NCBI GenBank assembly: GCA_913062955.1
Contig: CAJXZP010000025.1
Location: forward strand, 1 to 45,840
Direction: 5' to 3'
Source: an uncultured Flavobacteriales bacterium
GTDB taxonomy: Bacteria > Bacteroidota > Bacteroidia > Flavobacteriales_G > Salibacteraceae
Length of the DNA: 45,840 nt
The notes beneath the pieces are model-generated. The model saw nothing but the letters and a program-made list of their open reading frames with translations. It was not told the origin of the DNA and ran no database searches. How positions within the stretch are numbered: position 1 is the first letter of the stretch; every line of letters begins with the position of its first letter. Made by a program: the position numbers and the translations under genes. This document shows positions 12,106 to 31,298 of the stretch, in pieces.

Positions 12106-12183
12106 AGTTTGAAATGCGCAATTCGTTCCACTAATATATGACAATAAGAGGATGTGTGATTACCTCATAAGTGGAAGTACGTG

Positions 12184-12191
12184 CAAATTTA
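12184..12191 (-). promoter_or_regulatory. -7 box upstream of the DUF2490 operon
   Basis: TAAATTTG on the minus strand matches TAnnTTTG and would give a leader of roughly 70 bases. It lies in the ~370-base gap between divergent genes (12,106-12,476), which otherwise shows no gene. On the plus strand a second perfect box, TATTTTTG at 12426-12433, lies 44 bases before the DUF3667 gene. Confidence 0.45.
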
Positions 12192-12476
12192 CACTTCCCA
12201 TTTGGAGTTTTCATTGACTTTTAAGGATAGGGCCATGATGAATTGGAAAATACTTAGCCATTTGTTTCAGTGGGGGGTAAAATACGGGCAGTTTTAAACA
12301 AACTATGAATGGTCACTTTGTAAGAGTACATGGCGGATTCCATGTTCAAATCGTTTTATTCCTCCCGATATGCTTTTATTGTAAAGGAGTTAAGGGTAAT
12401 TAATATTCTGCCTTACAAAAAGCCTTATTTTTGAGCCTATAGGTAAATTGGTGAATACCCAGAATAATTGAATGAA

Positions 12477-13445
12477 ATGAGTAAAGAATTGGCTAGCCTT
12501 GAAAAGGATGAATCTTTAGAATGTAAAAATTGTGGCCAAGTACTTAACGGAAATTACTGTCCAGAATGTGGCCAATCCGTAAAGAATTTTGACAAACCTT
12601 TCCGATTTATTATTGCCGATTTTGCCGGGAATATATTTGCTTTCGATTCTCGTATTTTAAATACGCTGAAAGCAATTTTAATTCAGCCGGGGCAGTTGGC
12701 CAACGACATTACCCATGGCCGAAGAGCTAGATATATGCCGCCATTTCGATTTTATATTTTCGTTAGCTTTTTGTTTTTTCTATTGTTGAATTATACCTCC
12801 AATGGGTTTGAGGATTTTAATATAGGGAAGCAAGAAGACTCATTAGCTTTAGTGGCGGATTCAACTTCAGGAATACCAACGTTATCTGTGGAAATTTCAG
12901 ATACGTCACATTCACTATTTGATAATCTGAATGGCATTGAAATACCCGCAAAACCAAATTCCAAACTGACGGATTCCTTGTGGAGTAGCCCTATTCGATT
13001 TTCGGAGGATGTGGAGATAGATTTCAAGGATGTATTGGAGCATAAAGATTTGTATTGGGCCAAATTTTTAGGTAATATTTCTACCTCCATGTTTTTTCTC
13101 ATGCCTTGGTATGGGTTTTTATTATGGGTGTTTTTTAGGAAGACATATAAATACTATTTAGGGCACCTAGTGTTGGCTATTAATCAACATATCTTTAGTT
13201 ACTTGATATTTATTGTGATCCTATTTATTGGGATGATGTTCCCAAATAAAACCGCTTCGTATGAAAACTACTTGATTTGGGTTTTACCTATTTATTTTGT
13301 CATTGGAGCTCGAAAACTATATGGTCGGAAATGGACGACCACTTTAATGCGGATGTCGGTAATTGGTTTTTTGTATGTCATGCTATTAGTGGTGGTCATT
13401 GTTGGAGCCACCTTCCTATCTATGGTTAAGGATGTTGGGAGTTGA
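12477..13445 (+). CDS. DUF3667-family membrane protein with N-terminal zinc ribbon
   Basis: The product starts MSKELASLEKDESLECKNCG. A zinc ribbon CKNCG…CPECGQ (about residues 16-33) precedes the DUF3667 segment FRFIIADFAGNIFAFDSRIL…HGRRARYMPPFRFYIFVSFL (about 43-105). One hydrophobic span follows there, then four more near the C-terminus (about 200-320). Between them lies an acidic, Ser/Thr-rich loop. The ATG at 12477 is preferred over an in-frame TTG at 12468. The family is common in Bacteroidota and has no established function. Confidence 0.85.
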   Translation: MSKELASLEKDESLECKNCGQVLNGNYCPECGQSVKNFDKPFRFIIADFAGNIFAFDSRILNTLKAILIQPGQLANDITHGRRARYMPPFRFYIFVSFLFFLLLNYTSNGFEDFNIGKQEDSLALVADSTSGIPTLSVEISDTSHSLFDNLNGIEIPAKPNSKLTDSLWSSPIRFSEDVEIDFKDVLEHKDLYWAKFLGNISTSMFFLMPWYGFLLWVFFRKTYKYYLGHLVLAINQHIFSYLIFIVILFIGMMFPNKTASYENYLIWVLPIYFVIGARKLYGRKWTTTLMRMSVIGFLYVMLLVVVIVGATFLSMVKDVGS

Positions 13446-13575
13446 TGGTTTCAGGTCTGAAGAGGTAAGTTTGAGAAACCGAAAAATTAAATCTCTCAAT
13501 TTGCAATTTCTAGGGGATGGATAGTTCTAAAAAGGTAATTATCCCAAATAGAAATTAGTACAAACTACTACCGTA

Positions 13576-13989
13576 TTAACTTGGTAAATGGTCCTTTTCT
13601 AATTGCTCTCGGGTAGATGACACCAATAATTCTCTATGGTTGTTGGCTTGGTCCAAAAAGTCTTGATTGGCTTCCGTATCTGTATCAAACGTTCCTCCCC
13701 AAACAATCATTTCTATCATAAGGGGAAGTAAGGCGATTCCTTTAGGAGTAAGGCTATATTTTATACGGGATTTTTTTACGCTATCGGCTTCTTTTTTAAT
13801 AATACCTGATTCTTCTAATTGCTTTAATCGGTCTCCCAATACACTGGTGGAAACATTTTCATTGGACTCAAAAAACTCGTTGTAATGCCTTTTGTCTTTA
13901 AACATTAAATCTCGAATAATAAGGAGAGTCCATTTATCCCCAAAATGCTCTAAAGAAAAATTTATCGGACAGTGAGAACGCATTTTCAT
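13576..13989 (-). CDS. HxlR-family winged-helix transcriptional regulator
   Basis: The 137 residues match HxlR/MarR-like regulators: CPINFSLEHFGDKWTLLIIR (about 7-26, with the conserved N-terminal Cys), LGDRLKQLEESGIIKKE (recognition region, about 52-68), KIKYSLTPKG-like RIKYSLTPKGIALLPLM, and a C-terminal MIVWGGTF. The Cys suggests redox or electrophile sensing, as in HypR/YodB, but this is by family analogy. It is divergent from a SnoaL-like gene across 107 bases containing a palindrome that may be its operator. The -7 box TATATTTG (13994-14001, minus) ends four bases before the ATG. Confidence 0.9.
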   Translation of the reverse strand: MKMRSHCPINFSLEHFGDKWTLLIIRDLMFKDKRHYNEFFESNENVSTSVLGDRLKQLEESGIIKKEADSVKKSRIKYSLTPKGIALLPLMIEMIVWGGTFDTDTEANQDFLDQANNHRELLVSSTREQLEKDHLPS

Positions 13990-14015
13990 GGTGCAAATAT
14001 AAAAATATATTTTTT

Positions 14016-14073
14016 ATTTAACTTGCATATTCGAAGTTAATATCTAATTTCGCTTCGGAATTCCAAGTTAAAT
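14016..14073. promoter_or_regulatory. Interrupted palindrome between HxlR and SnoaL-like genes (operator candidate)
   Basis: ATTTAACTTG (14016-14025) and CAAGTTAAAT (14064-14073) are a perfect 10-base inverted repeat. A third copy of the core, GAAGTTAA, lies at 14033-14040. The spacing of about four helical turns and the position between divergent promoters suit HxlR dimers that repress both genes. Confidence 0.5.
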
Positions 14074-14096
14074 AGTAATCATCAAAAATTGAAAAA

Positions 14097-14465
14097 ATGC
14101 AAAAATCAACAATGGAAATTTTTCAAGCCTTTGGAAAAGGCTTAATGTCAGGAACAGATTCATGGAAAGAATTAGTCTCAGAAAATGTAACTTTTAATGG
14201 TCCTGTGGATCAGGTAAACGGAATAGAAGCTTTTGCAAAATTAAATGCCAATTTTATGCCCATGGTTAGAGGTAATGAAATGATACGAGCAGTTGAAGCC
14301 GGAGATTTTTTAATTACTCAGATGCAGATGAAGGTAGAAATGCCAACGGGTAAAATTATTGAACTGGATATGAGCGAGTGGTATGAGATGAAGGAAGGGA
14401 AAATTCAACACATCAAAATATATTATGATGCAGACGAATTTAGAAAGGAAATGCAAGTTGCATAA
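14097..14465 (+). CDS. SnoaL-like / NTF2-fold protein
   Basis: The 122-residue protein has the order of an NTF2-like cone fold: an N-terminal helix (IFQAFGKGLMSGTDSWKELV), then VTFNGPVDQVNGIEAFAKLN, and closing strands MPTGKIIELDMSEWYEMKEG and KIQHIKIYYD. Such proteins are small hydrolases, isomerases or ligand binders. It is the likely target of the divergent HxlR regulator and is closed by a strong terminator. The substrate is unknown. Confidence 0.8.
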   Translation: MQKSTMEIFQAFGKGLMSGTDSWKELVSENVTFNGPVDQVNGIEAFAKLNANFMPMVRGNEMIRAVEAGDFLITQMQMKVEMPTGKIIELDMSEWYEMKEGKIQHIKIYYDADEFRKEMQVA

Positions 14466-14471
14466 CCTATT

Positions 14472-14503
14472 AGGGCGAGCTGAGAAGCTCGCCCTATATT
14501 TTT
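14472..14503 (+). terminator. Rho-independent terminator of the SnoaL-like gene
   Basis: Perfect 10-base arms AGGGCGAGCT (14472-14481) and AGCTCGCCCT (14486-14495) with a GAGA loop, followed by ATA and a run of T. Confidence 0.9.
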
Positions 14504-15010
14504 TTTAATAAACGTGAAGATGAAAGAATCAATATTATTGAGATTAGGGTGGTAACGCACAATAATTTTTTTTGAAAAAAGAGAGGCTATTTTAGGTTAC
14601 GAAGAATTCTTTTTACCGAAGGCTTTAATATAAGCTACGATATTTTTGAACAAGCCATAGGGAAGGCCCAAATTTCCGAAGCAAACCGGGTTCCAAATTA
14701 ATTTTTAATGCTGACCTCTTTCCAAAAGGGAAATTAGGTAAATATATGTTCCATAAGTGTTACCAAGGAGCCATTGAAAATAGGAATATTTAACTCGAAA
14801 CGAGAAATACCAAAGACACAATTACATAAATGTGGTGTGTATACATGGGGATGCCTCCTAAAGAGGAATGGGGTCTAAACCACTTGTTTTATAGTTTTTC
14901 TAATTCTGTTTATTAACGTAATTGAACAGTAATGATAGGTTGACCCACAGGTTGTTTTTAATTTTGAAAACCTGTGACGGAGAGTAACAAGGGCCGTTTT
15001 TTATTTTCCT
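14504..15010. other. 500-base gap with fragments of a possible dead gene
   Basis: No intact frame is present. On the plus strand, short coding-like runs follow one another in different frames, such as GFNISYDIFEQAIGKAQISE (about 14,618-14,680) and FPKGKLGKYMFHKCYQGAIE (about 14,720-14,780). This suggests a plus-strand relic with several frameshifts. I cannot name the family. Confidence 0.3.
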
Positions 15011-16579
15011 CTAAGCCTCTTGCATTTGTTGTTGAAACGTAATTTCGATAAATTCTGAAGGTCGAATTATGGCGACTTGAATGCTAACCTTCATTATTCC
15101 ATTCAAAATATCATGATCCGTCATTGTGCTGCCTAGACCAATACTTACCTTAAATGCTTCATTGGGTTTAGAACCAGCTAGTGCCCCTCGTTTCCAAAGA
15201 TCGTCCAAAAAGTGGGTGATCATCGATTTTAGGGTAGCCCAAGTATTTGCGTTGTTGGGCTCAAATACCTGGGCTTTCGTTGCTTCTTGAATGGATTTTT
15301 CTATGAAAATAGTCGTTCTTCGAACGTTAATATATCGCCAATCTGGTGAGTTTCCATCTAGGGTTCGAGCACCCCAAACGAGGTTTCCTCTACCTGTAAA
15401 TTCTCGTATGGCGTTAATTGATTTACCGTAAAGGGGCATGTTTAAATCGTCTTGTCCCATATTGTCAATGGTAACTGCGGGAGATAGGGTGCTTTGTATT
15501 TCTACATTGGATGGTGATTTCCAAACGCCACTTTTCGAATCTACCAAGGTAAATATTCCTGCTATAGCTGCACTAGGAGCCATTAAGTTCATTTGTTTTA
15601 AAATGCCCCCCAATATTAATAGGTACACCTTGCTTCGGGATTGAAGTATTAACTGAGCTTGATCTAGAGACATTTCCGGTTTTTCCGAAAAAGCAGAAAT
15701 CACCTTTGCCATTTCGGGGTCTAAAACCCCTTTGACATTGGTAAATTCAGTGGTTAATAACTGAGCTACCTGAGGATAAGAAGCTTCGTTAATATTCGCA
15801 TACGAAATCTCAGCCATGGAGTACACCGTAGTGTTTAACCACGGGTAATACGCAGCTGCGTAACTATTAAATTGGGATTGCTTGGGTGCTACACTCGCTC
15901 TAAATTGTTGTACGGAGGTGGTTCTCATAAGTGGCTCGGAAAACCCTCCGGGGATATCAAGGAGGGCCACTCTATTCTTCATACGCGCACAATGATTAAT
16001 CATTTCGCTCTGAAGCGCATAGGCGTTTAGGTACTTATCTTGTAAATACGTATCCGAAAAGGGATTTGCAGTAGGCTCATTAATTTCCATTAAATCTGGA
16101 ATAACCAACATAGTGGGTTCTGTTTCCTGTTCTAATAAAACAAGGGCATCCTTAAATTCGGTGGTATCTGTAATGGCATTTTTAGAATAATCATAGGAAC
16201 CAATACTCAGGATGTAACATTCACCACCTCCATTTTCATAAAAGAATTTTAGGCTACTGTACATTCTATAATTTATAGTGGTAGGAGCGAGGATATAGTC
16301 CTTTTCATGAAAACTAAAATGGTTAATTCTCTTGGAGGAATCATGAGTAGGGTCAATACCAAATTGTACTTGAGGGGCTTCGGTACCGAAAATCATATGG
16401 AACTCGGCCAAGGAGGATACCTTAACGGGGTGGGTCAATGCATTTTTTTCGTTAGTAAAAATTTGAGAAGTATAGCCAATAAATACAGGTATGTCAGTAG
16501 GTGCAGCTACAATAGATATTCCATAAGCATCTTGTTCTTGCGTATAAACTCCCGGTGTTTTCCTAGATGTTCTGACCAT
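15011..16579 (-). CDS. Contractile-tail sheath protein (phage/eCIS type), solitary
   Basis: The 522-residue protein starts MVRTSRKTPGVYTQEQDAYG, the classic sheath opening (PGVY.E). It continues with APTDIPVFIGYTS (about 30-42) and VSSLAEFHMIFG (about 55-66). The C-terminal sheath domain contains FTGRGNLVWGARTLDGN, YINVRRTTIFIEKSIQEATK, VFEPNNANTW and a final strand IRPSEFIEITFQQQ. Sheath subunits polymerise and contract to drive an inner tube. The ATG at 16579 replaces an upstream in-frame start because the PGVY motif normally lies within the first 15 residues. No tube, baseplate, spike or AAA+ gene is visible nearby, so it is either an orphan or works with a locus elsewhere. Confidence 0.88.
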   Translation of the reverse strand: MVRTSRKTPGVYTQEQDAYGISIVAAPTDIPVFIGYTSQIFTNEKNALTHPVKVSSLAEFHMIFGTEAPQVQFGIDPTHDSSKRINHFSFHEKDYILAPTTINYRMYSSLKFFYENGGGECYILSIGSYDYSKNAITDTTEFKDALVLLEQETEPTMLVIPDLMEINEPTANPFSDTYLQDKYLNAYALQSEMINHCARMKNRVALLDIPGGFSEPLMRTTSVQQFRASVAPKQSQFNSYAAAYYPWLNTTVYSMAEISYANINEASYPQVAQLLTTEFTNVKGVLDPEMAKVISAFSEKPEMSLDQAQLILQSRSKVYLLILGGILKQMNLMAPSAAIAGIFTLVDSKSGVWKSPSNVEIQSTLSPAVTIDNMGQDDLNMPLYGKSINAIREFTGRGNLVWGARTLDGNSPDWRYINVRRTTIFIEKSIQEATKAQVFEPNNANTWATLKSMITHFLDDLWKRGALAGSKPNEAFKVSIGLGSTMTDHDILNGIMKVSIQVAIIRPSEFIEITFQQQMQEA

Positions 16580-16747
16580 GTTTTTCGACTTAATTAATAC
16601 TATCTTATGGTATTCACTGTTCAAAACTCCAAGACGCATAACCCAGGCATTGAATTTATCGAAAGTACGGTTTAGGAGAAAAAAATAAATGAGTAAAATT
16701 ACCTGTTATAAATCCTGCTTATCCATTGAAATACAGATGTGTATTAA

Positions 16748-16766
16748 AGTGAATTTGAAATTCACT
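16748..16766. repeat. Short palindrome upstream of the sheath gene
   Basis: AGTGAATT and AATTCACT flank TGA, a near-perfect operator-like palindrome between the sheath gene and the GldM-like pseudogene. Its function is unknown. Confidence 0.35.
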
Positions 16767-16831
16767 GCAAAGTATTGGGAACATGTAGGGGAAGACATTT
16801 TTTTTTTCGTGGTTTAAGAAATGTGATTTGG

Positions 16832-17490
16832 CTATTGACTAAATACACCACCCAATTTGTTTTCATTTCCATCGGGTCCTATGTACTTTAATAGGATGCT
16901 AACCACTCCACCTTGAGGGGCGTTCATTAGGTGTTTTTTTGCTTCCTCGGTTAACTGTGGTCCTACTCCCTCAAAAGTTTCACTACCTACATACAAACTC
17001 CAGCTTAATACTTCAAAATTGAACCTTTGCAATTTCTCGGGATTATTTTTAACGGAAAAATAAGTGGGATGTCTTGGAACCCTGGCACCATTGATGGATG
17101 GACCAAAAAACAGAGTAGGGGTAGGAAGGTATTGGTTAATATATTGATGTCTGGAGTATGGTATGGAAGGTGTTGAACAGGATATTACGGAAAGTACTGT
17201 GTGTTTGTTTTACTGGGCCTAATAATGTAGGTATGCGGTAAATCACTTTTGTAAAGGGTGTCACAGTTGGTGCAAGTCACTTTATAATCTAATGTTTTGG
17301 GACTCACGTTAATCGTAACCTGATTATCCACCCCACGATAAATTTCTTGGTGCTTTAGAAAAGAAATGGCTATGCTTGTATCACCCTTCAATGTTTTTTC
17401 GGCCGATAGTTTCTTATCAGAAGGTGTTTTCTGTACGGCACATGAACAGGTTATTCCAAGAACAACGAACAGTAAAATTATATTTTTCAT
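16832..17490 (-). pseudogene. GldM C-terminal-domain-like lipoprotein, frameshifted
   Basis: The first frame (17490 to 17185) starts with a lipoprotein signal (GITCSCA) and runs to IYRGVDNQVTINVSPKTLDY and PHTYIIRPSKTNT, the Ig-like arrangement of GldM's periplasmic domains. The reading then shifts. The second frame carries VLSVISCSTPSIPYS, RVPRHPTYFSVKNNPE, FNFEVLSWSLYVG, and GVGPQLTEEAKKHLMNAPQG and ends at 16832. The second half matches the last GldM domain (…FRVR.IP…, GP.LT…..KA..G..V…I…GPDG). The frames join cleanly if one CA is removed from the CACACA at 17203-17198 (minus). GldM is the T9SS/gliding motor shaft; this one lacks the N-terminal membrane helix and is instead lipid-anchored. 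Confidence 0.7.
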
Positions 17491-17585
17491 GGTTTTAAAT
17501 TAGCATCAAATTAAAACAGCTTTTGTTTTGGAGCGATGTTTGGAAACCCTTCATATTCCAACCCTAAATGTAAGTTATTAATGGG

Positions 17586-18059
17586 TTAATCATCCAGGCG
17601 GTAAATGTACTCCTCAATTTCTTTTCCTCGAGCATTTGCAAAATCGGTGTTCTTACCTATTTTTTTAAATCCCGTTTTTTCCAAAATATGTTGCGAACCA
17701 TAGTTGTCATTGGCTACTCTTCCATAAAGGGGGCGCGTTCTTTCTATTTCGAGAAATAGCTTTACGGCTTTGCTGGTGATTCCTTTACCCCAAAGTGCTT
17801 TGTTTAAGGCATAGGTAATATCTGAATCGCCTCCCATAACAAATTTCACAACGCAACCTACCACCACATGGTCCAGTAATATAGATTGCATATGTACCGA
17901 ATCCACGGTTAACAATCGGGTCCATTTTTTAATGTACGCGTTTTTGTTGTTTGGGTCCTCGGAAGTGAAAGCAGCCATGAAATTGGCTTCTTCGTCTGTT
18001 TGATTATGGAAAAATACTTCCAGATCTGCTACGGTAGAATTTCTAAGTGATATTTTCAT
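17586..18059 (-). CDS. GNAT-family N-acetyltransferase (RimJ/RimL type)
   Basis: The 157-residue enzyme opens MKISLRNSTVADLEVFFHNQ. It contains the acetyl-CoA pyrophosphate region DITYALNKALWGKGITSKAV (about 85-104) and the closing motif YGRVANDNYGSQHILEKTGF (about 114-133), which is typical of RimJ/RimL acetyltransferases. The acceptor is unknown. A second, distinct GNAT gene lies at 29,344. Confidence 0.88.
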   Translation of the reverse strand: MKISLRNSTVADLEVFFHNQTDEEANFMAAFTSEDPNNKNAYIKKWTRLLTVDSVHMQSILLDHVVVGCVVKFVMGGDSDITYALNKALWGKGITSKAVKLFLEIERTRPLYGRVANDNYGSQHILEKTGFKKIGKNTDFANARGKEIEEYIYRLDD

Positions 18060-18455
18060 CTGTGACTGTTTAGAATGTAACCTGAAACTTTTTTATCCCG
18101 ATTTATGGGTGTGCTAATCTATAATAAACGTTTTATTTGGGAGGGGTTTTGTTCGCACCTTTTGAGAAAATAAAGTGAGGTTTGGATGAAAGATCCTGTT
18201 CCTATTTTTGCAGGTGGAGCAATAAATGTTTGAACGACCCTATTGTAGAACCGGCAAAGCAATTTGCTCATAATCTGGAAACGGATAGAGAAGCGACATT
18301 AAATCAATTTATGAAAAAGTAATTCAACTTTCGGAAATTGTTTTTTTTCGGTGATACTAGATCTTTACCTGTTTTCACCATAGGGAAGAGCTTCTAAAAG
18401 ACAATAGGGATGTTCTATTTCAGGGATCCAAAATCCAGATCAAAAAAGCGAAAAA

Positions 18456-18496
18456 AAAACTCACATTGAATACATGTGAAATTCAATGTGAGTTTT
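18456..18496. terminator. 15-bp perfect inverted repeat (terminator-like)
   Basis: Arms AAAACTCACATTGAA (18456-18470) and TTCAATGTGAGTTTT (18482-18496) pair without mismatch around an 11-base loop, with A and T runs on the outer sides. It lies in the ~600-base gap 18,060-18,660 and could stop transcription from either side, although the nearest gene end (18,661) is about 165 bases away. A short plus-strand frame at about 18,230-18,322 (NDPIVEPAKQFAHNLETDRE…) looks coding-like but has no start and may be a relic. Confidence 0.5.
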
Positions 18497-18660
18497 GGTT
18501 GTGAAAACTCTCCTTCACCTAGGAGACTTTTTATTTGCGATACTTTCAATTCTTATTTTTGGGTGCAAAAGCGATCGCTTACATTTCCCGTATTTAGAGA
18601 ATGTACTTATTGGGATGAATTCCCATGGGGGTGTTTTTAGCAAATCATAGTGTATGTGTT

Positions 18661-19110
18661 TTAAAGTGTGAATAATAGATGTTTAGTGTTCTGAAATAAT
18701 TGCTTTTGGTGAGTGTAACCAGATTTTAATGAAACATTAAAAACATAAGGTCCTCTTACTAAAAAGCTAACGTTAATATTGTGGTCAGGGTTAGATATGG
18801 CGTAACTTAATCTACTTGTAAGGTCTAAAACTTGGAGTTCACGGATGTCTTCTTTTGTTTCAATTTGAACAAATTCAGTAGCTGCATTTGCATGTATATG
18901 GTATTCTATTCGAGTACTATTTTTTATTGCAAGAGGTTCTGATCCTGCTACTGAACCGGTAGCTCCGAAGAATAAATAATCACCGAAAGTGGTTAAACTC
19001 TGAGGCGACTTTATGACCCGAGAGTCCGTGGCTAAGTATGTTATTCTAGTCTGAGAAAACGCACTGCTCAGTACTAAACTTAAACCTAGAAGTATTAAAA
19101 TGTGTTTCAT
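18661..19110 (-). pseudogene. Internally deleted copy of the ELWxxD-repeat T9SS cargo gene
   Basis: The 149 residues align at both ends with the 536-residue protein encoded at 31,396-33,006. The N-terminus (MKHILILLGLSLVLSSAFSQ) matches MKNILVILGLGLGLSNAFGQ, and LTTFGDYLFFGATGSVAG matches LTALGDHLYFGASTPATG. The text then jumps to HANAATEFVQIETKEDI, which matches the T9SS domain start HPNPATEFVQIDTQEEI. About 390 central residues, including nearly all repeats, are missing. The sorting-signal PNPA is mutated to ANAA and the last residues are altered. It keeps the signal peptide and the shared 30-bp upstream element, so it may still be transcribed, but it is probably dead. Confidence 0.75.
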
Positions 19111-19169
19111 TTAGATTGGTTTAAATTAATATGAATCACAAATAAACGGTGGGAATATGGATTTCAATA

Positions 19170-19207
19170 AAAACCTAGGTGTGCAAAAGGTGTCAATTTA
19201 ATAAGTG
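19170..19207 (-). promoter_or_regulatory. Shared upstream element, copy 1
   Basis: The 30-bp core 19178-19207 reads, on the minus strand, CACTTATTAAA followed by TTGACACCTTTTGCACACC. It is 68 bases upstream of the start at 19110. TTG at 19196-19194 followed 16 bases later by TAGGTTTT (19177-19170) may be the -33 and -7 boxes. The rest of the gap 19,208-19,526 holds only a 10-bp inverted repeat (19384-19393 with 19427-19436). Confidence 0.6.
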
Positions 19208-19526
19208 GTATTATATCAATGGATTAAAGAAATGAAATGGGGGTTAATTTGGAATTTAAAGCAAATTATAGGGTCAAGAAAATCGTCTTTACCCATTAAA
19301 CCTCAGCGAAATTTGATAGGTTTCATCCTTTAGGAAGAGATGAATAGGGTCTGAACGTTATTTGAGACACTATTGTAAGATCCGGAAAGAACCATTGCGT
19401 AATTCTGTTTATATGGATGATGGAACGGTTCTTTCCATTTGAATTGATTTCCTAGTGCAATTCATTTAAATGGACTTCATGTTGTAGCGCATCATCCACC
19501 CGTTTTATTGGGGCTAAAATTCTCAA

Positions 19527-22500
19527 TTATTCTTTAATAATTTTTGTAGCGTACCTAGCTATCTCTGTATGGTAAGTTACAAAGTAAATACCTGGTTTCA
19601 ACATATGGATGTCTAAGAGCACGTTGCCATCAGAAATCCTAAAATCACAATTCATTTTTCGTCCTGTGGCATCCTCAATTTTAAAATATTTATAGGCTCC
19701 TTCCCAAAAATAACCTTGGTCTAGTTTGATGGTTACTAACGAGTTTCCTGGGTTTGGATAAACAATCAATTTATTATTCTTATGGGGTAGTGTAACAATG
19801 GTATTAAACACCACATTGGTTTTCAGTGGTGACTCATAATCAAATGTAATTTCGGCTTGATTTTGAATTAGTTTCCCTCGCGTAATGTTGCTTAATGGGA
19901 GAACGCTGTAAGTGATAAATCCATGGCTTTTTGGTTCACTATTCGTACTATCAGGTAACCATATATTTGGAAAGTCCCAATGCAATTCATTTCCTTTCTT
20001 CGTGAAGTTTCCTGAATGAGAAGAACTCAGTAGTTTAAAAGAATTAAAATCAATTCCATCAGGTAGAATATTTCGTACTTCTATGTTTTGAGCGGGGAAA
20101 TTTCCTACGTTTTGAAATCGAATAATATAGGTGAGCTCTTGCTCTTTGTTAATCATATGTTCTTCTCCAATACCAATCGGGGTCACCAACATATCATTAG
20201 GGTCAATAGCCCCCACAATTTCTTCACTTATGGTTGTTTGATTATCTGAATTATTTAATTCATTGAGGTTATCCGTAATTGAGGCTGAGATGGTAATACT
20301 ATCGGAAACCGTGGCGTTAACAGAAACACTATCTAGAATGGAAATCATTCCGGAACTTCCTATAGGAATTTGACTTAAGTTCCAATAGGTAACATTATTT
20401 ACCTTAGAATCCCATTCGGGTGAGGCGCTAATAGGAGTACAATCGACTGACCAGGTGACTTGTAGAACATCAGCGGTAGCGTTTTCGGTACCCACATTGG
20501 CATAGGTAATTACCACATTATTCCTAAAACCTTTACGTTGAGCAGATGAGGCTATGTCTATTTTTAAATCTACCCCTTGCGACAAGGCTTGATTTGGGAA
20601 ATCATTTCCGGTCCATGTCTGATTAGTCGCGGTTACAATTACAGTATTCGTAGAGTTACAGTTTTGTGTCCAATAATTTCCTACTTCTTGGGTAATGGTA
20701 TATGATCCGTTGGGTAAACGGACGGAATAAACGCCATTCGCGTTGGTGACTGTACTGATTCCTCCTGGTGAAATATGAATGGTGACACCTGCCAGTGAGG
20801 TTTCCGTTTCGTTTTGAATACAATCGCCATTTTCATCAAAAAATACAGTTCCTGATATAACAGAGGCATTTTCCTCTTGAATAACTAAATATTGATTGGA
20901 CGATACCCCCGTTTGATGTTGGGTATAACCCGAGGGCCATTTTATCTCAATACTATCTACCGTAGCGTTATCCCCTAAACCAAAATGTATGTTTAAACTA
21001 TTCTGGCCACCAAATCCCGATTGCGAATTGACTTCTCTAATTTGCCAAATCCCATTACATTTAGTGCGCACTCTAGCTCCTATTGCAGATACATTCGAGT
21101 GGGTACCCACCAGTTTTAAAACTAACCAATTATTCGAATTTCCATTATTGGTAAAAAACCGATCCTTTTCATTCCCATGGGTAGACATCAGTAGATCTAA
21201 ATCTCCATCTCTATCATAGTCGGACCAGCAGGTTCCGTAAGAATTAGATAAGGCAGAGGTGATTACCTCATTATTGTTTCGGTTCAATACCCCCGTCCCA
21301 TCATTTATATATAGAAATTTACGTTGCGCTTGATCGTTGGTCACAAACAAATCCAAATCTCCATCATTATCTACATCCATCCAATTACAACCGTGACTGC
21401 TGCCTACATCCGTAGCAATGCTTCCTGTGGTTACCAAAGAAAAGGTTTCATCTCCATTGTTATGGTATAATAAATTTTCATCATTAGATGAAGAGGCGAC
21501 AAACAAGTCGAGATATCCATCATTATCATAATCTCCCCAGCAACTTGCCACACAATTTTTAGCATCTTGCACAATAATTCCGGTGGTTATTTTTTCGAAT
21601 TCGCCATTACCCAGATTTTTATATAAGTTATTATTGGCCGAGTCCCCATTTGGGACGAATAAATCCATTAACCCGTCATTATTAAAATCAGCCCAACTCG
21701 CACCAATAGACCGCCCCACATCCAAACACATAGGTTGGTTGGTGACAGATGTAAATGATCCATCCCCATTTCCATGATACAGTTGATTAAAGTTTACGGC
21801 CATAAAATCACTCACAAATAAATCCAGGTTTCCATCATTGTCATAATCGGCCCAAGCTGCCCCATGATGATATCCTTGGGTGTTGACACTTGGATCAGAA
21901 TTTATTTTTGTAAATGTTTGATCCGAATTATTCAGGTATAAATCACTTTTGGAGCCTAGGTTAACGGCTACAAAACAATCTCTATCATTATCATTATCAA
22001 CATCAGCCCAGGTAGAAGTAATACTACCTCCTTGGTGAGTGACTATTTTTCCTGTTGTTTTTTCAGTAAAAGTTCCATCTCCGTTATTTACATACAGTTG
22101 ATTACTTGAATTTGTTCCATAATTGGAGATGTACAGATCATCGTAGCCATCTCCATTAAAATCAACCCAACTCGCAGTCCAGGAATCCGTGTTGGCTTGA
22201 ACAAAAGCCACATTGGTTATCTCGGTGAAGAGGAGTGATTCTGTATTGGAACTTTCATTTTCAATTCCGTTTGTGGTCACAGATTGTTGAAAATCACCAT
22301 CAATAGTACCCGAAATTACCGTTTCAATATTAATGACGGTGTTCTCGGGAATTGGGTTCCCATTGTTGTAATTCACCTGAAGTATCGTTTCCGTAATCAC
22401 ATTATAATCTTTGGTCGGGTCTAGGTCTGGAATATTGGAAAAACTAACTAAAGACTGATTGTCATTACTACTTATAGTGCCCGAAATAGAGGAGGCATCT

Positions 22501-24146
22501 GTTGAATTATTGAAGGTGGAACTCGTTGGAATAATCCCACTTCCAACGATCACTTCTACCGTAGCATTTTCAATATTTGAATTGGAGTTAAAAACTAAAT
22601 TGCTGGTAATGGTCACAGTATCTCCAGGGGCGGATAGATTGCTAGAAGACGAACTTTGTTGCGCAAAACTTTGTTCCTGAGAACTCCCGAAGTACATCAT
22701 CCAATTATCATTGAAATTGGTATTCATTACAGAAATATTAGCATCGGACTCTACCAATAAATAAGGCCTTTCTGGTCCGGAAGATGAATTACCGTTCCCA
22801 TTGTAAATGTCCCTCCATTCACTCAAAGTCAAATAACAATCTACATACCTATTGGGTAAAATGGTATAAGACCGATTAATTTCGGCTCCTCCAGAATAGG
22901 CATCTTTGACGGTTACATTTGCGGTATCCTTAGAAAATAAATAAACATGGGTTAATTGCTGGCCAAACAAACTTCCCGTAAATGGATCAAGTACGTTGGA
23001 TTCATTACCGGGGGGAGCCATGTAAACTAAGAACCGTTTTCCTGCCGTGGTCCCCTCTTCGGAAGATACCATGGTGGCCATATCCGATGTTCCTGGAGAT
23101 CCAGTTTCCATCCAATTTGCTTCAAAAACAGAGACCCTTTTTCCCGGTGAACAAACAATTTTGAACATAGTGGGATAGGTAGCATTATGATCTCTCCCAA
23201 CCCAATCGGAGGCTTCTAAACTAGCAGCAGTCCATGTGTCTAAAGAAATCCATGTACCTGAAGCATACCTGAAAAGCTCAATATTATTATTGTTGTCCCA
23301 AGATACGATTCTAATTTCTTGTTCTTGACTACTTTGATACGGAACCGCAAAATAGAACAACTCACCAGAGGAGGTTCCGTTAGACGAAGGAACATATCCG
23401 CCACCATCACGGCTATTTACCCATAACGCTCCGTACTGGATAGTGATGGGTTTGTTACTTTCAATCACATAGGTTTTACCGGTTTCTAAAAGATCTCGTC
23501 CATGGGTATTAAAATGAATTATTTCTTCGCCCACATTAAGGGTTACTTGGGTGACTATATCTTGTTTGAAATAATCCACATTGGTATAACCGGAGATACT
23601 GGTGGTATTAGAGGTGACAGAAATATTTCGAATGGTAACGGTGGTACTGTCTTCATAAACAAATACATTAATATCTCGGTTAGAAAAAGTTGTTCTAGGG
23701 GTATAAATAATGAATTTTTCGCCCAAGGAAGATTTATTAATAGAGGGGACCCAATCATGTTGCCAGTCACTATCCGTTGATTGCGAAGCGTAAACTAATT
23801 TGTCGGAAGTGATGATAAAATAATCTCCATCATGTTTATAAACACCCCCAGAAGCATATTTGGCATCATCATTAATTCCATTATCCTTTATGTACAAAAC
23901 ATAAGACTGACCAGCCATCAAAATACCTACAACACTATCATCATCATCCCCGTCCATATCGTCATCAATGATAGAAAATGAAGTGCTATCGTAAATGGCC
24001 GTAATGATCAAGCATACATTTCGTTGAACATTGTCATTATTGGGCGGGATAAAAATATTGAAATAGGTGGAAGGTTCTCCAGTACCAAATACCAAGCTAC
24101 AATGAAATAGAAGAATAGAGATACTTACGAGGAGTTTTTTGTTCAT
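19527..24146 (-). CDS. Giant secreted FG-GAP/ASPIC-UnbV protein with T9SS sorting domain
   Basis: The 1,539-residue protein starts with a signal peptide (cleavage near VFG, about residue 21). The N-terminal third (about 130-500) resembles the IgGFc-binding N-terminal domain (FIIYTPRTTFSNRDINVFVY; QYGALWV). Then come about eight FG-GAP/VCBS calcium-binding repeats (about 650-1,010) of the type WVDFNGDGYDDLYISN and YDNDGNLDLFVS. An ASPIC/UnbV domain follows (NWLVLKLVGTHSNVSAIGAR; HFGLGDNATVDSIEIKWPSG, about 1,030-1,110), then a SdrD-B-like module (ISGTVFFDENGDCIQNE). A DUF11-like domain precedes the C-terminal T9SS signal (IVYPNPGNSLVTIKL…ATKIIKE). It is probably surface-exposed or secreted and adhesive; the ligand is unknown. 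Confidence 0.9.
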   Translation of the reverse strand: MNKKLLVSISILLFHCSLVFGTGEPSTYFNIFIPPNNDNVQRNVCLIITAIYDSTSFSIIDDDMDGDDDDSVVGILMAGQSYVLYIKDNGINDDAKYASGGVYKHDGDYFIITSDKLVYASQSTDSDWQHDWVPSINKSSLGEKFIIYTPRTTFSNRDINVFVYEDSTTVTIRNISVTSNTTSISGYTNVDYFKQDIVTQVTLNVGEEIIHFNTHGRDLLETGKTYVIESNKPITIQYGALWVNSRDGGGYVPSSNGTSSGELFYFAVPYQSSQEQEIRIVSWDNNNNIELFRYASGTWISLDTWTAASLEASDWVGRDHNATYPTMFKIVCSPGKRVSVFEANWMETGSPGTSDMATMVSSEEGTTAGKRFLVYMAPPGNESNVLDPFTGSLFGQQLTHVYLFSKDTANVTVKDAYSGGAEINRSYTILPNRYVDCYLTLSEWRDIYNGNGNSSSGPERPYLLVESDANISVMNTNFNDNWMMYFGSSQEQSFAQQSSSSSNLSAPGDTVTITSNLVFNSNSNIENATVEVIVGSGIIPTSSTFNNSTDASSISGTISSNDNQSLVSFSNIPDLDPTKDYNVITETILQVNYNNGNPIPENTVINIETVISGTIDGDFQQSVTTNGIENESSNTESLLFTEITNVAFVQANTDSWTASWVDFNGDGYDDLYISNYGTNSSNQLYVNNGDGTFTEKTTGKIVTHQGGSITSTWADVDNDNDRDCFVAVNLGSKSDLYLNNSDQTFTKINSDPSVNTQGYHHGAAWADYDNDGNLDLFVSDFMAVNFNQLYHGNGDGSFTSVTNQPMCLDVGRSIGASWADFNNDGLMDLFVPNGDSANNNLYKNLGNGEFEKITTGIIVQDAKNCVASCWGDYDNDGYLDLFVASSSNDENLLYHNNGDETFSLVTTGSIATDVGSSHGCNWMDVDNDGDLDLFVTNDQAQRKFLYINDGTGVLNRNNNEVITSALSNSYGTCWSDYDRDGDLDLLMSTHGNEKDRFFTNNGNSNNWLVLKLVGTHSNVSAIGARVRTKCNGIWQIREVNSQSGFGGQNSLNIHFGLGDNATVDSIEIKWPSGYTQHQTGVSSNQYLVIQEENASVISGTVFFDENGDCIQNETETSLAGVTIHISPGGISTVTNANGVYSVRLPNGSYTITQEVGNYWTQNCNSTNTVIVTATNQTWTGNDFPNQALSQGVDLKIDIASSAQRKGFRNNVVITYANVGTENATADVLQVTWSVDCTPISASPEWDSKVNNVTYWNLSQIPIGSSGMISILDSVSVNATVSDSITISASITDNLNELNNSDNQTTISEEIVGAIDPNDMLVTPIGIGEEHMINKEQELTYIIRFQNVGNFPAQNIEVRNILPDGIDFNSFKLLSSSHSGNFTKKGNELHWDFPNIWLPDSTNSEPKSHGFITYSVLPLSNITRGKLIQNQAEITFDYESPLKTNVVFNTIVTLPHKNNKLIVYPNPGNSLVTIKLDQGYFWEGAYKYFKIEDATGRKMNCDFRISDGNVLLDIHMLKPGIYFVTYHTEIARYATKIIKE

Positions 24147-24375
24147 TTTTCATTTTCGAGAAATAACGCAAGATTAATACCAGTAACACATTTTGTAAGG
24201 ACGAATGTTTTATTTCAATGTGAATGAGAGTTGTATAGGGATGGGGGTGTTTTTTTTTAGCCATACAAACTTCCCAATTACAGATCCGAATTCCAAATTT
24301 GGGAATAAGTACATGCCGAAAAACGTATAATCGGCAACACTCTTAAATACGCTATAGGGGAGGAAATACGGAATG

Positions 24376-24540
24376 GATTGGAGGCTATAAACTATTTAAA
24401 TAATCCGCTAAATCATGATTTACGGTAAGTTCCATTTTATTTTTACTCGGTAACGGGCAGATTTCACGGAATCAGGAGAGATGGATAAGGTCTGTGCGGT
24501 TTCTTTTAAAGTGTATCGGAGTTTACTTAAAGAATAAGGA
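24376..24540 (-). pseudogene. Relic of the C-terminal HTH of a TPR/LuxR-type regulator
   Basis: On the minus strand from about 24537 the frame gives YSLSKLRYTLKETAQTLSIS, PDSVKSARYRVK. After losing one A at the A-run opposite 24434-24437, it continues MELTVNHDLADYLNSL and a stop at about 24376. This matches the C-terminal 50 residues of the intact regulator at 34,955-36,664 (…YSLKETAQTLSISPDSVK…MELTAKQDLSDYLNAI). Everything upstream of this HTH is gone and replaced by a regulator of another family. It lies upstream of the FG-GAP giant gene, as the intact copy lies upstream of the FG-GAP gene at 34,806. Confidence 0.85.
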
Positions 24541-25050
24541 GCTCTCTTTGACTTTGGATGTTTTTTAATGTTTTGTAGGTGATTTTTACGAATTGAAAAT
24601 TTGTGATGGCGGATTGAAGCTCAATGAGATGACGACTGGTTTTATCGTTATCCTTTTTACTTCGTTTTTGGATTCGAGTGGCAAGGAATTCAGTTTGCTC
24701 TTTCTGACCGTGTTTTAAAATGGATTTAATTTTGATCAGTGCATTTTCATAGTGCTCAGATAACGATGTGTCTGCGTTTTTTTTATTAGTTGTTCAACCG
24801 TAATTAGGGCATTTGCTTCCTCTTGGGTGAACATAACGGGAGGTAGTTTATAGCCATCCATGATAGAATATCCTTTTCCTTCTTCGGATACAATGGGCAC
24901 GCCCGATTTTTCCAAGGTTCTGATATCTCGATATACAGTTCTTATACTGATATTATGTTTTTTAGCCATTTCAATGGCGGTTAGGAGTCGCTGTGATTGC
25001 AATTGCGTTAAAATGGCCGTTAATCGGGTTAGCCGAGGTTTGTTTTCCAT
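24540..25050 (-). pseudogene. Truncated, frameshifted YafY/WYL-type transcriptional regulator
   Basis: The first frame (25050 to 24736) encodes the DeoR-like HTH and linker: RLTAILTQLQSQRLLTAIEM, HNISIRTVYRDIRTLEKSGV and GYKLPPVMFTQEEANALITV. It leaves frame at eight A's (minus strand, opposite 24777-24784). Adding one A restores NADTSLSEHYENALIKIKSI, LKHGQKEQTEFLATRIQKRS and onwards to NFQFVKITYKTLKN at about 24560. That is the start of the WYL ligand-binding domain, where the gene is cut off and meets the HTH relic. Family members are about 230-320 residues; here roughly 170 remain. Confidence 0.8.
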
Positions 25051-25126
25051 AATGTATCGGTGTTTTACGGGGATCTTATCTATTGTAAATAGTGAACTAA
25101 ATAGGACGTATTTAAAGGGGAGCTTT

Positions 25127-25915
25127 CTATTTAAACTTTTTATTTTGGCATTTTAAATCTACTAAAACGCCTGTAATAAATTCATTTGCCTTTTTTAGCA
25201 TGAGTTCTGGAACTTCTTTATGAGGGGTGTGTTTGACTTTGGGTAGGATAAGTTTCAAGGAAGTTCCTTGGGTAGCCTTTAATATTCCTTGAACTTGTTT
25301 CAGGGTCCCGTATTCATCATTTTCTCCTTGTACAATTAAAGATGGACATTCAATGAAGGGCAAAAAGGATTCCATATTCCATGTTTTGAAATCCTCACTA
25401 AGCCATGTAGTAGCCCATGCCCAGAACATATCTTCTGTTTTATCGCCATGATATTTTTCAAGTTTGGATTTTAAGTTTGTGGTTTTGTAGAATTGAACGG
25501 CTTCTTTAATCCCGGCTAACGTTACCGTTTCTACAAAAATATGGGCGCCTTCGGTAACGATGCATTTAATCTTTTTAGGATATTTTCCAGCGGTAATTAA
25601 TGCAATAGACCCGCCATCGCTATGGCCAAACAAAATGACATCTTTAAGTTTCCAATGATCAATTAGGTTGTGAAGTATGTCTGCCTCTTTTTCCATATAG
25701 GTGTGGTCACGTTTAGAAGAACTAAAGGGACCTGATTTGCCATAGCCTTGACGGTCATAAATAAGAATATTGCATTGCGTTAGTTCCCCCAGTTTCTCCG
25801 GGAAATCTCGCCATAATTCAATAGAACCTAAAGAATCATGGAGAAATATTAATGTGGGGCGGTCCGGGTAATTATGGACGTGTTTGAATGCGATATCGTT
25901 TATTGAAAATTTCAT
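25127..25915 (-). CDS. Alpha/beta-hydrolase
   Basis: The 262-residue enzyme shows the oxyanion strand PTLIFLHDSLGSIELWRDFP (about 21-40), IYDRQGYGKSGP (about 53-65), and the nucleophile elbow LFGHSDGGSIAL (about 92-103, Ser in GHSDG). Late acid and base candidates are VQGENDEYG (about 200-208) and VKHTPHKEVP (about 231-240). The substrate is unknown. I use the ATG at 25915 (MKFSIND) rather than 25927. It lies 76 bases upstream of the broken WYL regulator on the same strand. The 86 bases from 25,916 to the PanE gene hold nothing evident. Confidence 0.87.
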   Translation of the reverse strand: MKFSINDIAFKHVHNYPDRPTLIFLHDSLGSIELWRDFPEKLGELTQCNILIYDRQGYGKSGPFSSSKRDHTYMEKEADILHNLIDHWKLKDVILFGHSDGGSIALITAGKYPKKIKCIVTEGAHIFVETVTLAGIKEAVQFYKTTNLKSKLEKYHGDKTEDMFWAWATTWLSEDFKTWNMESFLPFIECPSLIVQGENDEYGTLKQVQGILKATQGTSLKLILPKVKHTPHKEVPELMLKKANEFITGVLVDLKCQNKKFK

Positions 25916-26001
25916 GTTTAATCTCATTTAATCCGTATAGCTGCCCTGTTGAAGTGTGTAGAAACGTACAATAATTAAGGATCAATCGACCTAAGTTTTT
26001 A

Positions 26002-26949
26002 CTATCCTTGGTTTATCGCTTTTATTTCGTTATAAATATTTTGAGTGAAAGGGGTCTTAATTTTTAAGTCAGATCCGTATTTCAAAATAGCCCCCGCAAA
26101 TAATTCTAATTCGTTTTGTTCTTTTCCATTATTCACATCTAATTGTAAGGATGTAGGTGTTTTTGGAGGGAAGGTGGATGCTTTGGAAAAGGAAATATTG
26201 ATAATGTGATCTCCTAAACGAATAGATTTCCCCTTGGCAATTTGGTGAATTTCGGTCATTATTTCGGTGGCTTCTTTGCGTTGAAACTCATCGGAACAAA
26301 CCTTGCCAATAGAAGAGTTGTGCTTGGCTGTTACTAAACCAAAACTGGCAATGAAAATAAATTTGGTCCAAATATCTACCATCGAGTTTTCCTTAAATTC
26401 AAAATCAATGGCACTCTGTTTTATTATTTGAGTGACCCAAGTAATGTCGGAAGCTGGATTTTCTGGATCTTTACCAAAAATTAGTTTACCCGCTTTTCCG
26501 GTATGCTCAACAATACCTTTTTCTTTGATATGTGATGCCACATAAACACAAGAAGGGAGAATGATGTTGTTTGGTAATTTGGTTCGGATTCGGTCGTAAA
26601 TATTCGCTCCATTCATCATAGGGAATAGGATGGTATTGGGAGTGATAACCTCGGATAATTGGGTACAGACATTTTCTAAATCATACTCTTTAACACAAAT
26701 GAAAATTAAATCTGGATGTGTTATTTCTGAAATGTTCTGAAGTAGGGAATCCGGAACTGTGGTAGCTGATTCATGATCTGGGGAAAGTAATGTCAATCCC
26801 GTATTTTTAACGGTTTCAAACGTTTTTCCTCTGGCAACAAACGTTACCCTATGTGATTTGTTGTTTTCATTATTTTTGTTGATTTTAAATCCAAAGTATC
26901 CTCCTACTCCGCCAAGTCCAATGACGATTATGTTTTTTGTATTCCTCAT
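26002..26949 (-). CDS. Ketopantoate reductase family protein (ApbA/PanE-like)
   Basis: The 315 residues contain the Rossmann dinucleotide motif IIVIGLGGVGGYFGFKI (about 7-23). TVFARG-type VTFVARGKTFETVKNTGL (about 34-51) and a conserved FICVKEYDLENVCTQL with MMNGANIYDRIRTKLP (about 90-125) follow. The C-terminal helical domain has the catalytic-Lys-type segment MVDIWTKFIFIASFGL (about 188-203) and ends with TPFTQNIYNEI. PanE makes pantoate for coenzyme A using NADPH. However, many paralogues in this family act on other 2-keto or amino substrates, and no other CoA biosynthesis gene is nearby, so I do not assign a symbol. It is followed upstream by a Crp/Fnr regulator 63 bases away. Confidence 0.87.
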   Translation of the reverse strand: MRNTKNIIVIGLGGVGGYFGFKINKNNENNKSHRVTFVARGKTFETVKNTGLTLLSPDHESATTVPDSLLQNISEITHPDLIFICVKEYDLENVCTQLSEVITPNTILFPMMNGANIYDRIRTKLPNNIILPSCVYVASHIKEKGIVEHTGKAGKLIFGKDPENPASDITWVTQIIKQSAIDFEFKENSMVDIWTKFIFIASFGLVTAKHNSSIGKVCSDEFQRKEATEIMTEIHQIAKGKSIRLGDHIINISFSKASTFPPKTPTSLQLDVNNGKEQNELELFAGAILKYGSDLKIKTPFTQNIYNEIKAINQG

Positions 26950-27012
26950 TTATTTTATTTCTGCAAAGTTCGAATTAGATGCGCATAGAAACACTTGATA
27001 AATGACAAGAAA

Positions 27013-27594
27013 TTACATCTTGCTCGTTTCTTTCCGTATTCTACTTAGGGTGCTATCGGTAATTCCTAAATAGGAAGCAATAATTTTGAGCGACACGTTT
27101 TGAAAAATATCAGGTTTTTGTTTTAGTAAATTGAGATATCTAGTTTCTGCTTTTTGGCTAGCCATTTCAATGACTCTATCGTTTAATTTATCATAGTTAA
27201 TCACCAATAGAAGCCGGCTGAACTCTCTAAACTCTGGAATGGTATGGAAGTTGGATTGAACATTTGTGAGTCCCGTTTTCCAATATTTACAGTTCGTTAA
27301 GGTTTGAAAAGTTTCTTTAGTTGGGTGCTGTTTAAAAAAGGATAAAAAGTCGTTTACAAAACAGGGGGCAACATAAATTTGAGTGGTGACCTCCTCATTT
27401 TCTTCATTGAGGATAAAAGAACGCATGTATCCTTTTTCTAAAAAATAGGTTTCGGTACTAATGGTGTTTGCTTCTAGTAAACACGCATTTTTGGGTAACT
27501 CAAAATAGTGGAATGCGAGGGTTATTTTTTCTACCGTACCTTTTTCAATTGGAAATAGCGAATGAAAATAATGGTTTAATATGGTTTTATCCAT
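27013..27594 (-). CDS. Crp/Fnr-family transcriptional regulator
   Basis: The 193-residue protein (ATG at 27594; the longer frame would begin with TTG) has a cyclic-nucleotide-binding-like beta-barrel. Segments include LPKNACLLEANTISTETYFL (about 34-53) and EKGYMRSFILNEENEEVTTQ (about 54-73). The C-terminal winged helix contains NVSLKIIASYLGITDSTLSR (about 168-187). Residues for cAMP binding are not preserved, as in many Bacteroidota homologues. It is 63 bases upstream of the PanE-like gene on the same strand and may control it. Confidence 0.87.
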   Translation of the reverse strand: MDKTILNHYFHSLFPIEKGTVEKITLAFHYFELPKNACLLEANTISTETYFLEKGYMRSFILNEENEEVTTQIYVAPCFVNDFLSFFKQHPTKETFQTLTNCKYWKTGLTNVQSNFHTIPEFREFSRLLLVINYDKLNDRVIEMASQKAETRYLNLLKQKPDIFQNVSLKIIASYLGITDSTLSRIRKETSKM

Positions 27595-27749
27595 GGCTTG
27601 ATGTGTCAAATTCGGGAATGCACAAAGTTACATAGATTAAATTTATTACTAGAAATTCAGTGTAGGATTGAAAATTAATTAGAGATAACTCGTACTATTT
27701 TCGGCATGTGAATCAACTAGTAGTGGCGTACTGATAAACGTTGGTCGTT

Positions 27750-28310
27750 TTATACTCGATCTAGTTTTACATGTGGTTTTGGCGGGAGTTCAATCCTTAT
27801 TGGGGTTCCAGATTCTACTTCACCACCTTCTAAAACGATTCCCATGATTCCCGCTTTTCGAATCAAATTTCCTTCTGGGTCCGTATCTAAAACGGCTTTC
27901 ATTAATCCCGGTTTTATTAAATCGAGTTGATGGCAGGGGTTTCTAAGTCCTGTGATCTTAATTTTTACCTTGGGACCAATACTTAATATAGCATCCTTTG
28001 GGAGATCCAGTAAATTAATTCCGGTAGTGGTAATGTTTTCGCCAATTTGTCCAGCCTTAATTTGAAACCCTTTGCTCTTTAATTCCTCAAATAGTTCGGA
28101 ATGAATTAAATGGACCTGTCTTAAATTGGGTTGATTTGGGTCTTTGGCCACTCGAGATCGATGTTTCACATTCTTTCCCATATGTGCGTCCCCTTCCACT
28201 CCCAATCCTTTTAATAATGAAATTTGGGGGCAGTTTTCTTTACGGAAAGAATGGGTTTTGCTTTTGCTAACTGATTTAACGAAACCCCGGTTGACTTGCT
28301 TTTGGTCCAT
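27750..28310 (-). CDS. MOSC-domain protein
   Basis: The 186-residue protein contains the MOSC pattern: GLGVEGDAHMGKNVKHRSRV (about 34-53), RQVHLIHSELFEELK (about 62-76), AGQIGENITTTGINLLDLPK (about 82-101), and the conserved Cys in ITGLRNPCHQLDLIKPG (about 113-129). MOSC domains occur in molybdenum-cofactor sulfurases and sulfur-carrier enzymes; stand-alone forms are often YiiM-like reductases for N-hydroxylated compounds. It is 38 bases after the M43 protease gene. Confidence 0.9.
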   Translation of the reverse strand: MDQKQVNRGFVKSVSKSKTHSFRKENCPQISLLKGLGVEGDAHMGKNVKHRSRVAKDPNQPNLRQVHLIHSELFEELKSKGFQIKAGQIGENITTTGINLLDLPKDAILSIGPKVKIKITGLRNPCHQLDLIKPGLMKAVLDTDPEGNLIRKAGIMGIVLEGGEVESGTPIRIELPPKPHVKLDRV

Positions 28311-31279: not shown

Positions 31280-31298
31280 AGTGTTTGTTTTAATCAAA

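What the first reader, a model, noticed from the sequence alone, without database searches (positions are those of the whole stretch)
15011..17490. Orphan contractile sheath gene next to the GldM-like lipoprotein
Sheath subunits are useless alone, yet no tube, baseplate, spike or ATPase gene is present within 15 kb on either side. An exported GldM-like lipoprotein lies about 250 bases upstream on the same strand. This may be a leftover of an extracellular contractile injection locus, an extra sheath variant, or part of an unusual assembly.
Basis: partly seen in the sequence, partly recalled or inferred. Interest (0 to 1): 0.6.

Follow-up and report, generated by a model that had tools for sequence, protein, structure and literature searches.

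The report
Lone contractile-sheath gene, eCIS remnant
This bacterium carries one intact gene for the spring-like outer sheath of a molecular injection syringe but has lost or never received the rest of the machine; the gene looks like a relic drifting away from its relatives, although similar lone sheath genes in other bacteria suggest that some may have found a second use.

Summary
The sheath gene is real: 522 aa, window 15011-16579, minus strand, uninterrupted, with a confident sheath fold (pLDDT 91.7). [quoted passage not shown] Its closest relatives, including a same-genus genome (G001), sit in complete eCIS loci. In this genome (G000, 95.8% complete) searches found no gp25, VgrG, LysM, Afp11, Afp12, eCIS ATPase or DUF4255 gene. 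The only other parts are a distant sheath+tube pair on contig 31. The lone gene lies in a 27.8-kb segment (12145-39938) absent from two congeners, while the site that holds the eCIS in G001 is empty here.

It evolves faster than eCIS-borne sisters (64:30 unique changes, p=0.0005) but is not a pseudogene. The neighbouring 'GldM-like lipoprotein' is frameshifted and matches no family model. Best reading: last survivor of a lost or fragmentary eCIS, no longer part of an injector.

Two results go beyond this window. Lone sheaths recur: 8 of 67 loci, at least 4 independent origins; one pair conserved between two MAGs keeps dN/dS about 0.15. Reduced sets (sheath, two tubes, a stand-alone ~170-aa tape-measure C-terminus) also recur. 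A sheath-only polymer remains possible.

The parts
15011..16579 (-). Orphan eCIS-type contractile sheath protein, 522 aa (alternative ATG at 16639 gives 542 aa)
   Evidence: PF17482 2e-12, PF04984 1.4e-7; PDB sequence match 9r9h_T E=8e-124 over residues 6-521; AlphaFold2 pLDDT 91.7, pTM 0.89; VIA-align Z 43 to the Algoriphagus eCIS sheath; inside the eCIS clade of the tree
12145..39938 (.). About 27.8-kb genome-specific segment that contains the sheath, between a DUF2490 gene (11299-12144) and an AMP-nucleosidase-like gene (39939-40721). The bounding genes are close together in G002; in G001 the left flank up to 7545 is joined directly to 39939
   Evidence: tblastn/blastn synteny with G002 (L060) and G001 (L061)
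17185..17490 (-).
   Evidence: frame analysis; no Pfam or NCBIfam hit
16832..17191 (-). Apparent continuation of that gene in another frame, up to the stop near 16832 (the upper end is where the queried stretch began, not a measured boundary)
   Evidence: no Pfam or NCBIfam hit
18661..19110 (-). Short ORF matching the two ends of the 536-aa ELWxxDGT/T9SS protein encoded at 31396-33006 (internally shortened copy), in the same low-coding-density stretch
   Evidence: blastp: residues 1-68 match 1-66 and residues 35-136 match 422-530 of 536; ELWxxDGT identification of the long copy

Best explanation
The gene is the surviving sheath gene of an Afp/AlgoCIS-type extracellular contractile injection system that the lineage lost or received only in part. 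In relatives the sheath polymerises around the tube on a baseplate and contracts to drive tube and spike into a target. Here the baseplate, spike, tube-initiator and ATPase genes were not found, so no injector of this type can be built. The gene now sits at a non-ancestral site in a genome-specific segment and is drifting under weakened constraint. If still expressed, the protein would at most form baseplate-free sheath polymers. Shown: an intact eCIS sheath, no detectable eCIS core in the genome, a segment absent from congeners, faster evolution. Inferred: descent from a once-complete eCIS in this lineage, loss of injector function, and absence of a selected present role.
For: Closest relatives (57-65% identity) lie in complete eCIS loci: G001 of the same genus, G003 and G008, UBA2669, BRH_c54 and Fluviicola NORP2; G012's locus runs off its contig. 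G000 lacks gp25 and DUF4255, LysM, VgrG, Afp11, Afp12 and the eCIS ATPase, in a search where G001 gave near-identical hits to each. The G001 eCIS insertion site (NrdJ / methyltransferase) is contiguous in G000 and G005, and the sheath lies in a 27.8-kb segment absent from G001 and G002. Faster evolution: 17/139 otherwise invariant columns broken against 0-6 in eCIS-linked sheaths; Tajima 64:30, p=0.0005, controls not significant; end branch 0.60 against 0.25 or less in the sister clade of 11 eCIS sheaths. Coding density around the gene is 56% against 80-97% elsewhere, with a frameshifted neighbour and a shortened gene copy.
Against: The ORF is fully intact, folds confidently and keeps nearly all family-invariant residues (5 of 95 broken). 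The change rate at codon positions 1+2 relative to position 3 is 0.41, below 1, so much of its history was under constraint. No other eCIS fragment lies near it, so decay in place is not directly seen. Orphan sheaths elsewhere can be under purifying selection. Relative-rate tests weaken with more distant outgroups (p 0.03-0.23).
Confidence: 0.6

Rival explanations
1. Domesticated sheath: the lone protein is kept because it self-assembles into baseplate-free cytoplasmic fibrils (rhapidosome or polysheath-like) with a structural or other cellular role.
For: Lone sheaths recur: 8 of 67 named loci without a tube within the held flank; three of those genomes have neither gp25 nor tube; at least 4 independent origins forced by starred branches. 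The same-synteny pair L103/L113 has dN 0.051 and dS 0.33. Precedents: T4 gp18 alone makes polysheaths (PMC9230969); a Saprospira tail-sheath protein (SCFP) forms cytoplasmic fibrils (PMC3486910).
Against: No selection evidence for the window's own copy; it evolves faster than eCIS-borne sisters. No shared neighbour gene was seen among the orphans apart from the one syntenic pair. The Saprospira fibrils were not shown here to come from a baseplate-less genome.
Confidence: 0.2
2. Dispersed system: the sheath works with the sheath+tube pair on contig C31, and any missing parts are too diverged to detect or lie in the unassembled few percent of the genome.
For: C31 encodes an intact tube and a second sheath. 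Dispersed eCIS genes are known: Cardinium has 16 AFP-like genes in five regions (PMC3486910). G009 has sheath+tube about 30 kb from the rest of its eCIS.
Against: The C31 sheath is only 39% identical and on a long branch. All seven core families sought were missed at once although the assembly is 95.8% complete. No core gene was found on the stretches of C31 read.
Confidence: 0.12
3. Assembly or binning artefact: the sheath-bearing stretch does not belong to this chromosome.
For: Draft assembly of 131 contigs; one neighbouring gene carries a frameshift. Reads were not available.
Against: Both ends of the contig are syntenic with two congeners and agree with them gene by gene; contamination is given as 0.73%; GC of the segment (0.368) is close to the left flank (0.378).
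Confidence: 0.06

Closest known systems
AlgoCIS-type extracellular contractile injection systems (Algoriphagus; complete locus in same-genus G001)
   Same: Full-length sheath homology (61% overall to G001), the same fold (VIA-align Z 43 to 7adz/7ae0), Pfam PF04984/PF17482
   Different: No tube, baseplate, spike, ATPase or tape measure beside it, and apart from the C31 pair none in the genome; lacks the long Ala-rich insert of the nearest eCIS sheaths (39 against 135-174 residues)
Saprospira cytoplasmic fibril protein (SCFP) / rhapidosomes
   Same: A Bacteroidota tail-sheath protein reported to form intracellular fibrils (PMC3486910, citing Furusawa 2005)
   Different: No evidence here that the window protein is expressed or polymerises; SCFP sequence not compared
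Dispersed AFP-like genes of Cardinium hertigii
   Same: eCIS parts separated across a Bacteroidota genome (PMC3486910)
   Different: Cardinium keeps 16 AFP-like genes; G000 keeps two sheaths and one tube
Myophage and pyocin tail sheaths
   Same: Shared C-terminal sheath core
   Different: Phage hits cover only about 37% of the query at 33% identity or less; none covers 80%

Membership tests
eCIS-type sheath protein (PF04984 + PF17482) | Both sheath domains above the curated score | tested here: met
   47.4 against 26.9 bits and 31.9 against 31.4 bits
eCIS-type sheath protein (PF04984 + PF17482) | Phylogenetic placement within eCIS sheaths | tested here: met
   Inside a 27-row starred clade: 24 from full eCIS loci, 2 from reduced sets and the window
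eCIS-type sheath protein (PF04984 + PF17482) | Sheath fold | tested here: met
   pLDDT 91.7; Z 43.2, rmsd 3.4 over 408 residues to 7adz
eCIS-type sheath protein (PF04984 + PF17482) | Polymerises and contracts | not testable with these tools
Functional eCIS | Baseplate and sheath-initiator genes (gp25/Afp9, Afp11, Afp12) | tested here: not met
   None found in G000
Functional eCIS | VgrG spike, LysM (Afp7), AAA ATPase, DUF4255 | tested here: not met
   None found in G000; the one AAA hit (C8, 34% identity) has a counterpart outside the eCIS locus in G001 and looks like a general AAA/FtsH-type ATPase
Functional eCIS | Tube protein | tested here: inconclusive
   One tube in the genome, on C31 beside another sheath
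Prophage tail | Phage genes around it, or a full-length phage homologue | tested here: not met
   No phage gene recognised around it; no phage record covers 80% of the query; no relative in viral contigs
T6SS (including subtype iii) | TssE/gp25-family protein | tested here: not met
   PF04965 absent from G000; other T6SS models not searched
Rhapidosome / sheath-only fibril | Expressed sheath polymer in the cell | not testable with these tools
   Inference only; precedent PMC3486910

The most novel reading that the evidence does not exclude
Orphan eCIS sheaths, and reduced sets with sheath, one or two tubes and sometimes a stand-alone tape-measure C-terminus but no detected baseplate, are maintained as sheath(-tube) polymers with a function other than injection; the window's gene would be one extreme of that series.
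Probability: 0.2. Interest if true: 0.75.

Novelty: new member of a known kind. Interest (0 to 1): 0.4.

Why it matters
Published surveys define eCIS by many co-located genes (at least 10 core genes in PMC8213781; baseplate, tube and sheath-initiator classes required in PMC12210884), so lone or reduced sets are excluded by design. This case and its recurrence suggest that a hidden class of sheath genes exists outside complete loci. It gives a tractable question: decaying relics, or a second, polymer-only use of a contractile protein.

Tried and rejected
Phage origin: only partial phage matches and no viral_contig relative of either sheath. Simple rearrangement of a complete eCIS: the core genes sought were absent genome-wide. 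Decay in place at the G001 site: that site is empty in G000 and in G005. Internal deletion from a long-insert ancestor: not claimed, since the tree leaves the window's branch unresolved beside long-insert and shorter-insert clades. G019's sheath-like hit belongs to what looks like a phage sheath/tube pair. First AlphaFold2 run with 11 sequences was poor (pLDDT 59.6) and was replaced by one with 50 sequences. PADLOC, Rfam, tRNA and promoter scans gave nothing useful. dN/dS for the window copy itself is unusable because dS is saturated. 9r9h, the best PDB sequence match, did not appear in the fold-search list, so its source organism was not learned.

Full report
What is there. The window is the whole of contig C25 of a draft Bacteroidota-type genome (G000: 3.9 Mb, 131 contigs, 95.8% complete, 0.73% contamination). 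Its named relatives are Crocinitomicaceae and other Flavobacteriales MAGs. At 15011-16579 on the minus strand lies an uninterrupted 522-codon sheath ORF with both sheath domains above curated thresholds. Its best PDB sequence match covers residues 6-521 at E=8e-124 (9r9h_T). An AlphaFold2 model built on 50 homologues has mean pLDDT 91.7 and pTM 0.89 and aligns to the Algoriphagus eCIS sheath with Z 43. Phage records match only the C-terminal 37% or so.

Where its relatives live. In the same-genus closed genome G001 the orthologue is followed by two tubes, LysM, VgrG, gp25, Afp11, Afp12, a tape-measure protein, an AAA ATPase, a PAAR-like protein and DUF4157-type proteins (PF06841 and PF04965; CIS_TMP). 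G003 and G008 show the same order as far as read, and G012's locus runs off its contig. Among 67 named loci most are complete eCIS loci.

What G000 lacks. PF04965 (gp25) is absent. A joined query of G001's DUF4255, LysM, VgrG, Afp11, Afp12 and ATPase segments found each of them in G001 but in G000 only one 34% AAA hit, which has a counterpart outside the eCIS locus in G001. The only tube is on C31, next to a second sheath 39% identical to the window's. No other eCIS fragment is detectable in the window.

Where the gene sits. In G002 the DUF2490 and AMP-nucleosidase-like genes that bound the sheath segment are neighbours, and in G001 the left flank (up to 7545) joins 39939 directly. G000 has 27.8 kb between them (12145-39938) that holds the sheath. 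The site that carries the eCIS in G001 (NrdJ / methyltransferase) is contiguous in G000 and in G005. The sheath is thus not left at G001's locus. Frequent horizontal transfer of eCIS is known (PMC8213781).

The neighbour. The 'GldM-like lipoprotein' is a 101-aa ORF whose apparent continuation is in another frame. Neither half matches Pfam or NCBIfam. Coding density from 14466 to 19526 is 56%, against 80% in the whole segment and 86-97% in the flanks. Nearby, 18661-19110 is a shortened copy of the 31396-33006 gene.

Constraint. At columns invariant in eight relatives the window protein differs at 17 of 139; eCIS-linked ones differ at 0-6 and the lone G004 sheath at 8. Tajima tests against G001 with outgroup G013 give 64:30 (p=0.0005), while control pairs are not significant; with outgroups G004 and G009 the p-values range from 0.03 to 0.23. 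Its end branch is 0.60, against 0.25 or less in the sister clade of 11 sheaths. It still keeps 90 of 95 family-conserved columns. Constraint is therefore weakened, not absent; whether the weakening is recent cannot be told.

Recurrence. Eight of the 67 named loci have a sheath with no tube within the held flank (L093, L094, L097, L099, L101, L103, L104, L113); G004's sheath is also alone, with two tubes 38 kb away. Of the eight genomes, five lack gp25 and three of those also lack any tube. Starred branches force at least four changes of the lone state. L103 and L113 share the same neighbours, and their sheaths have dN 0.051 and dS 0.33, so at least one lone sheath is under purifying selection. 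Across the set, lone sheaths break conserved columns more often than eCIS-borne ones (p=4e-5), but the columns were defined on the eCIS-borne set and the rows are related, so this is only indicative.

Reduced sets. G005, L091, L100 (Lacinutrix himadriensis) and L098 (Winogradskyella) keep sheath, two tubes and a separate protein matching the C-terminal part of CIS_TMP, with or without VgrG, PAAR, DUF4255 or ATPase, and their genomes have no gp25. In three of the four the piece is 167-172 aa and begins at the same point of the 1391-aa G001 protein (residues 1225-1228); in L098 it is 274 aa. A 52-kb P. distasonis plasmid carries DUF4255, sheath and two tubes; six-frame HMMs found no other core gene on it. 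Only gp25 was searched across these whole genomes (in G005 also the families). That the same distant C-terminal piece survives several times is not what random decay predicts.

Interpretation. The simplest account of the window's gene is a surviving eCIS sheath with no machine to serve: no baseplate to nucleate on and no tube beside it. Deletion of single PVC baseplate, tube or sheath-initiator genes abolishes particles (PMC12210884), so an eCIS-type injector cannot be expected here. A polymer-only role is possible in principle: T4 gp18 alone forms polysheaths (PMC9230969) and a Saprospira tail-sheath protein is reported to form cytoplasmic fibrils (PMC3486910). For this copy nothing shows it.

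Limits.

Noticed in passing
L036:5937-11016 (G005); L091:9190-12995; L100:9986-15499; L098:8381-17110: Reduced CIS gene sets: sheath, tube1, tube2 and a stand-alone CIS_TMP C-terminal protein (167-172 aa in three, 274 aa in L098), with or without VgrG, PAAR, DUF4255 or ATPase; no gp25 in the whole genomes.
   Followed up: partly
L141:571-4462 (plasmid NZ_OY725765.1, Parabacteroides distasonis): A 52-kb plasmid carries DUF4255, a hypothetical gene, sheath and two tubes, with no other eCIS core gene detected on the plasmid.
   Followed up: partly
L003:7975-9964 (G000:C31): Isolated tube + sheath pair, intact, on a long branch, with no eCIS genes around it on the stretches read.
   Followed up: partly
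L103:9947-11431 and L113:9947-11431: Orphan sheath at the same place in two MAGs (one named Chitinophagaceae), dN/dS about 0.15; a tube gene stands alone elsewhere in each genome (L135, L136).
   Followed up: yes
L089:11522-11992: Altibacter MAG: the single tube beside the sheath looks like tube1 N-terminus joined to tube2 C-terminus.
   Followed up: no
window:19527-24146, 29945-31297, 31396-33006, 33445-34893: The same genome-specific segment is rich in T9SS-tail proteins with FG-GAP/ASPIC or ELWxxDGT repeats.
   Followed up: no
L051:9580-12980 (G001): Two genes for proteins with a DUF4157-like N-terminus next to G001's eCIS, likely cargo; judged by eye, not scanned.
   Followed up: no
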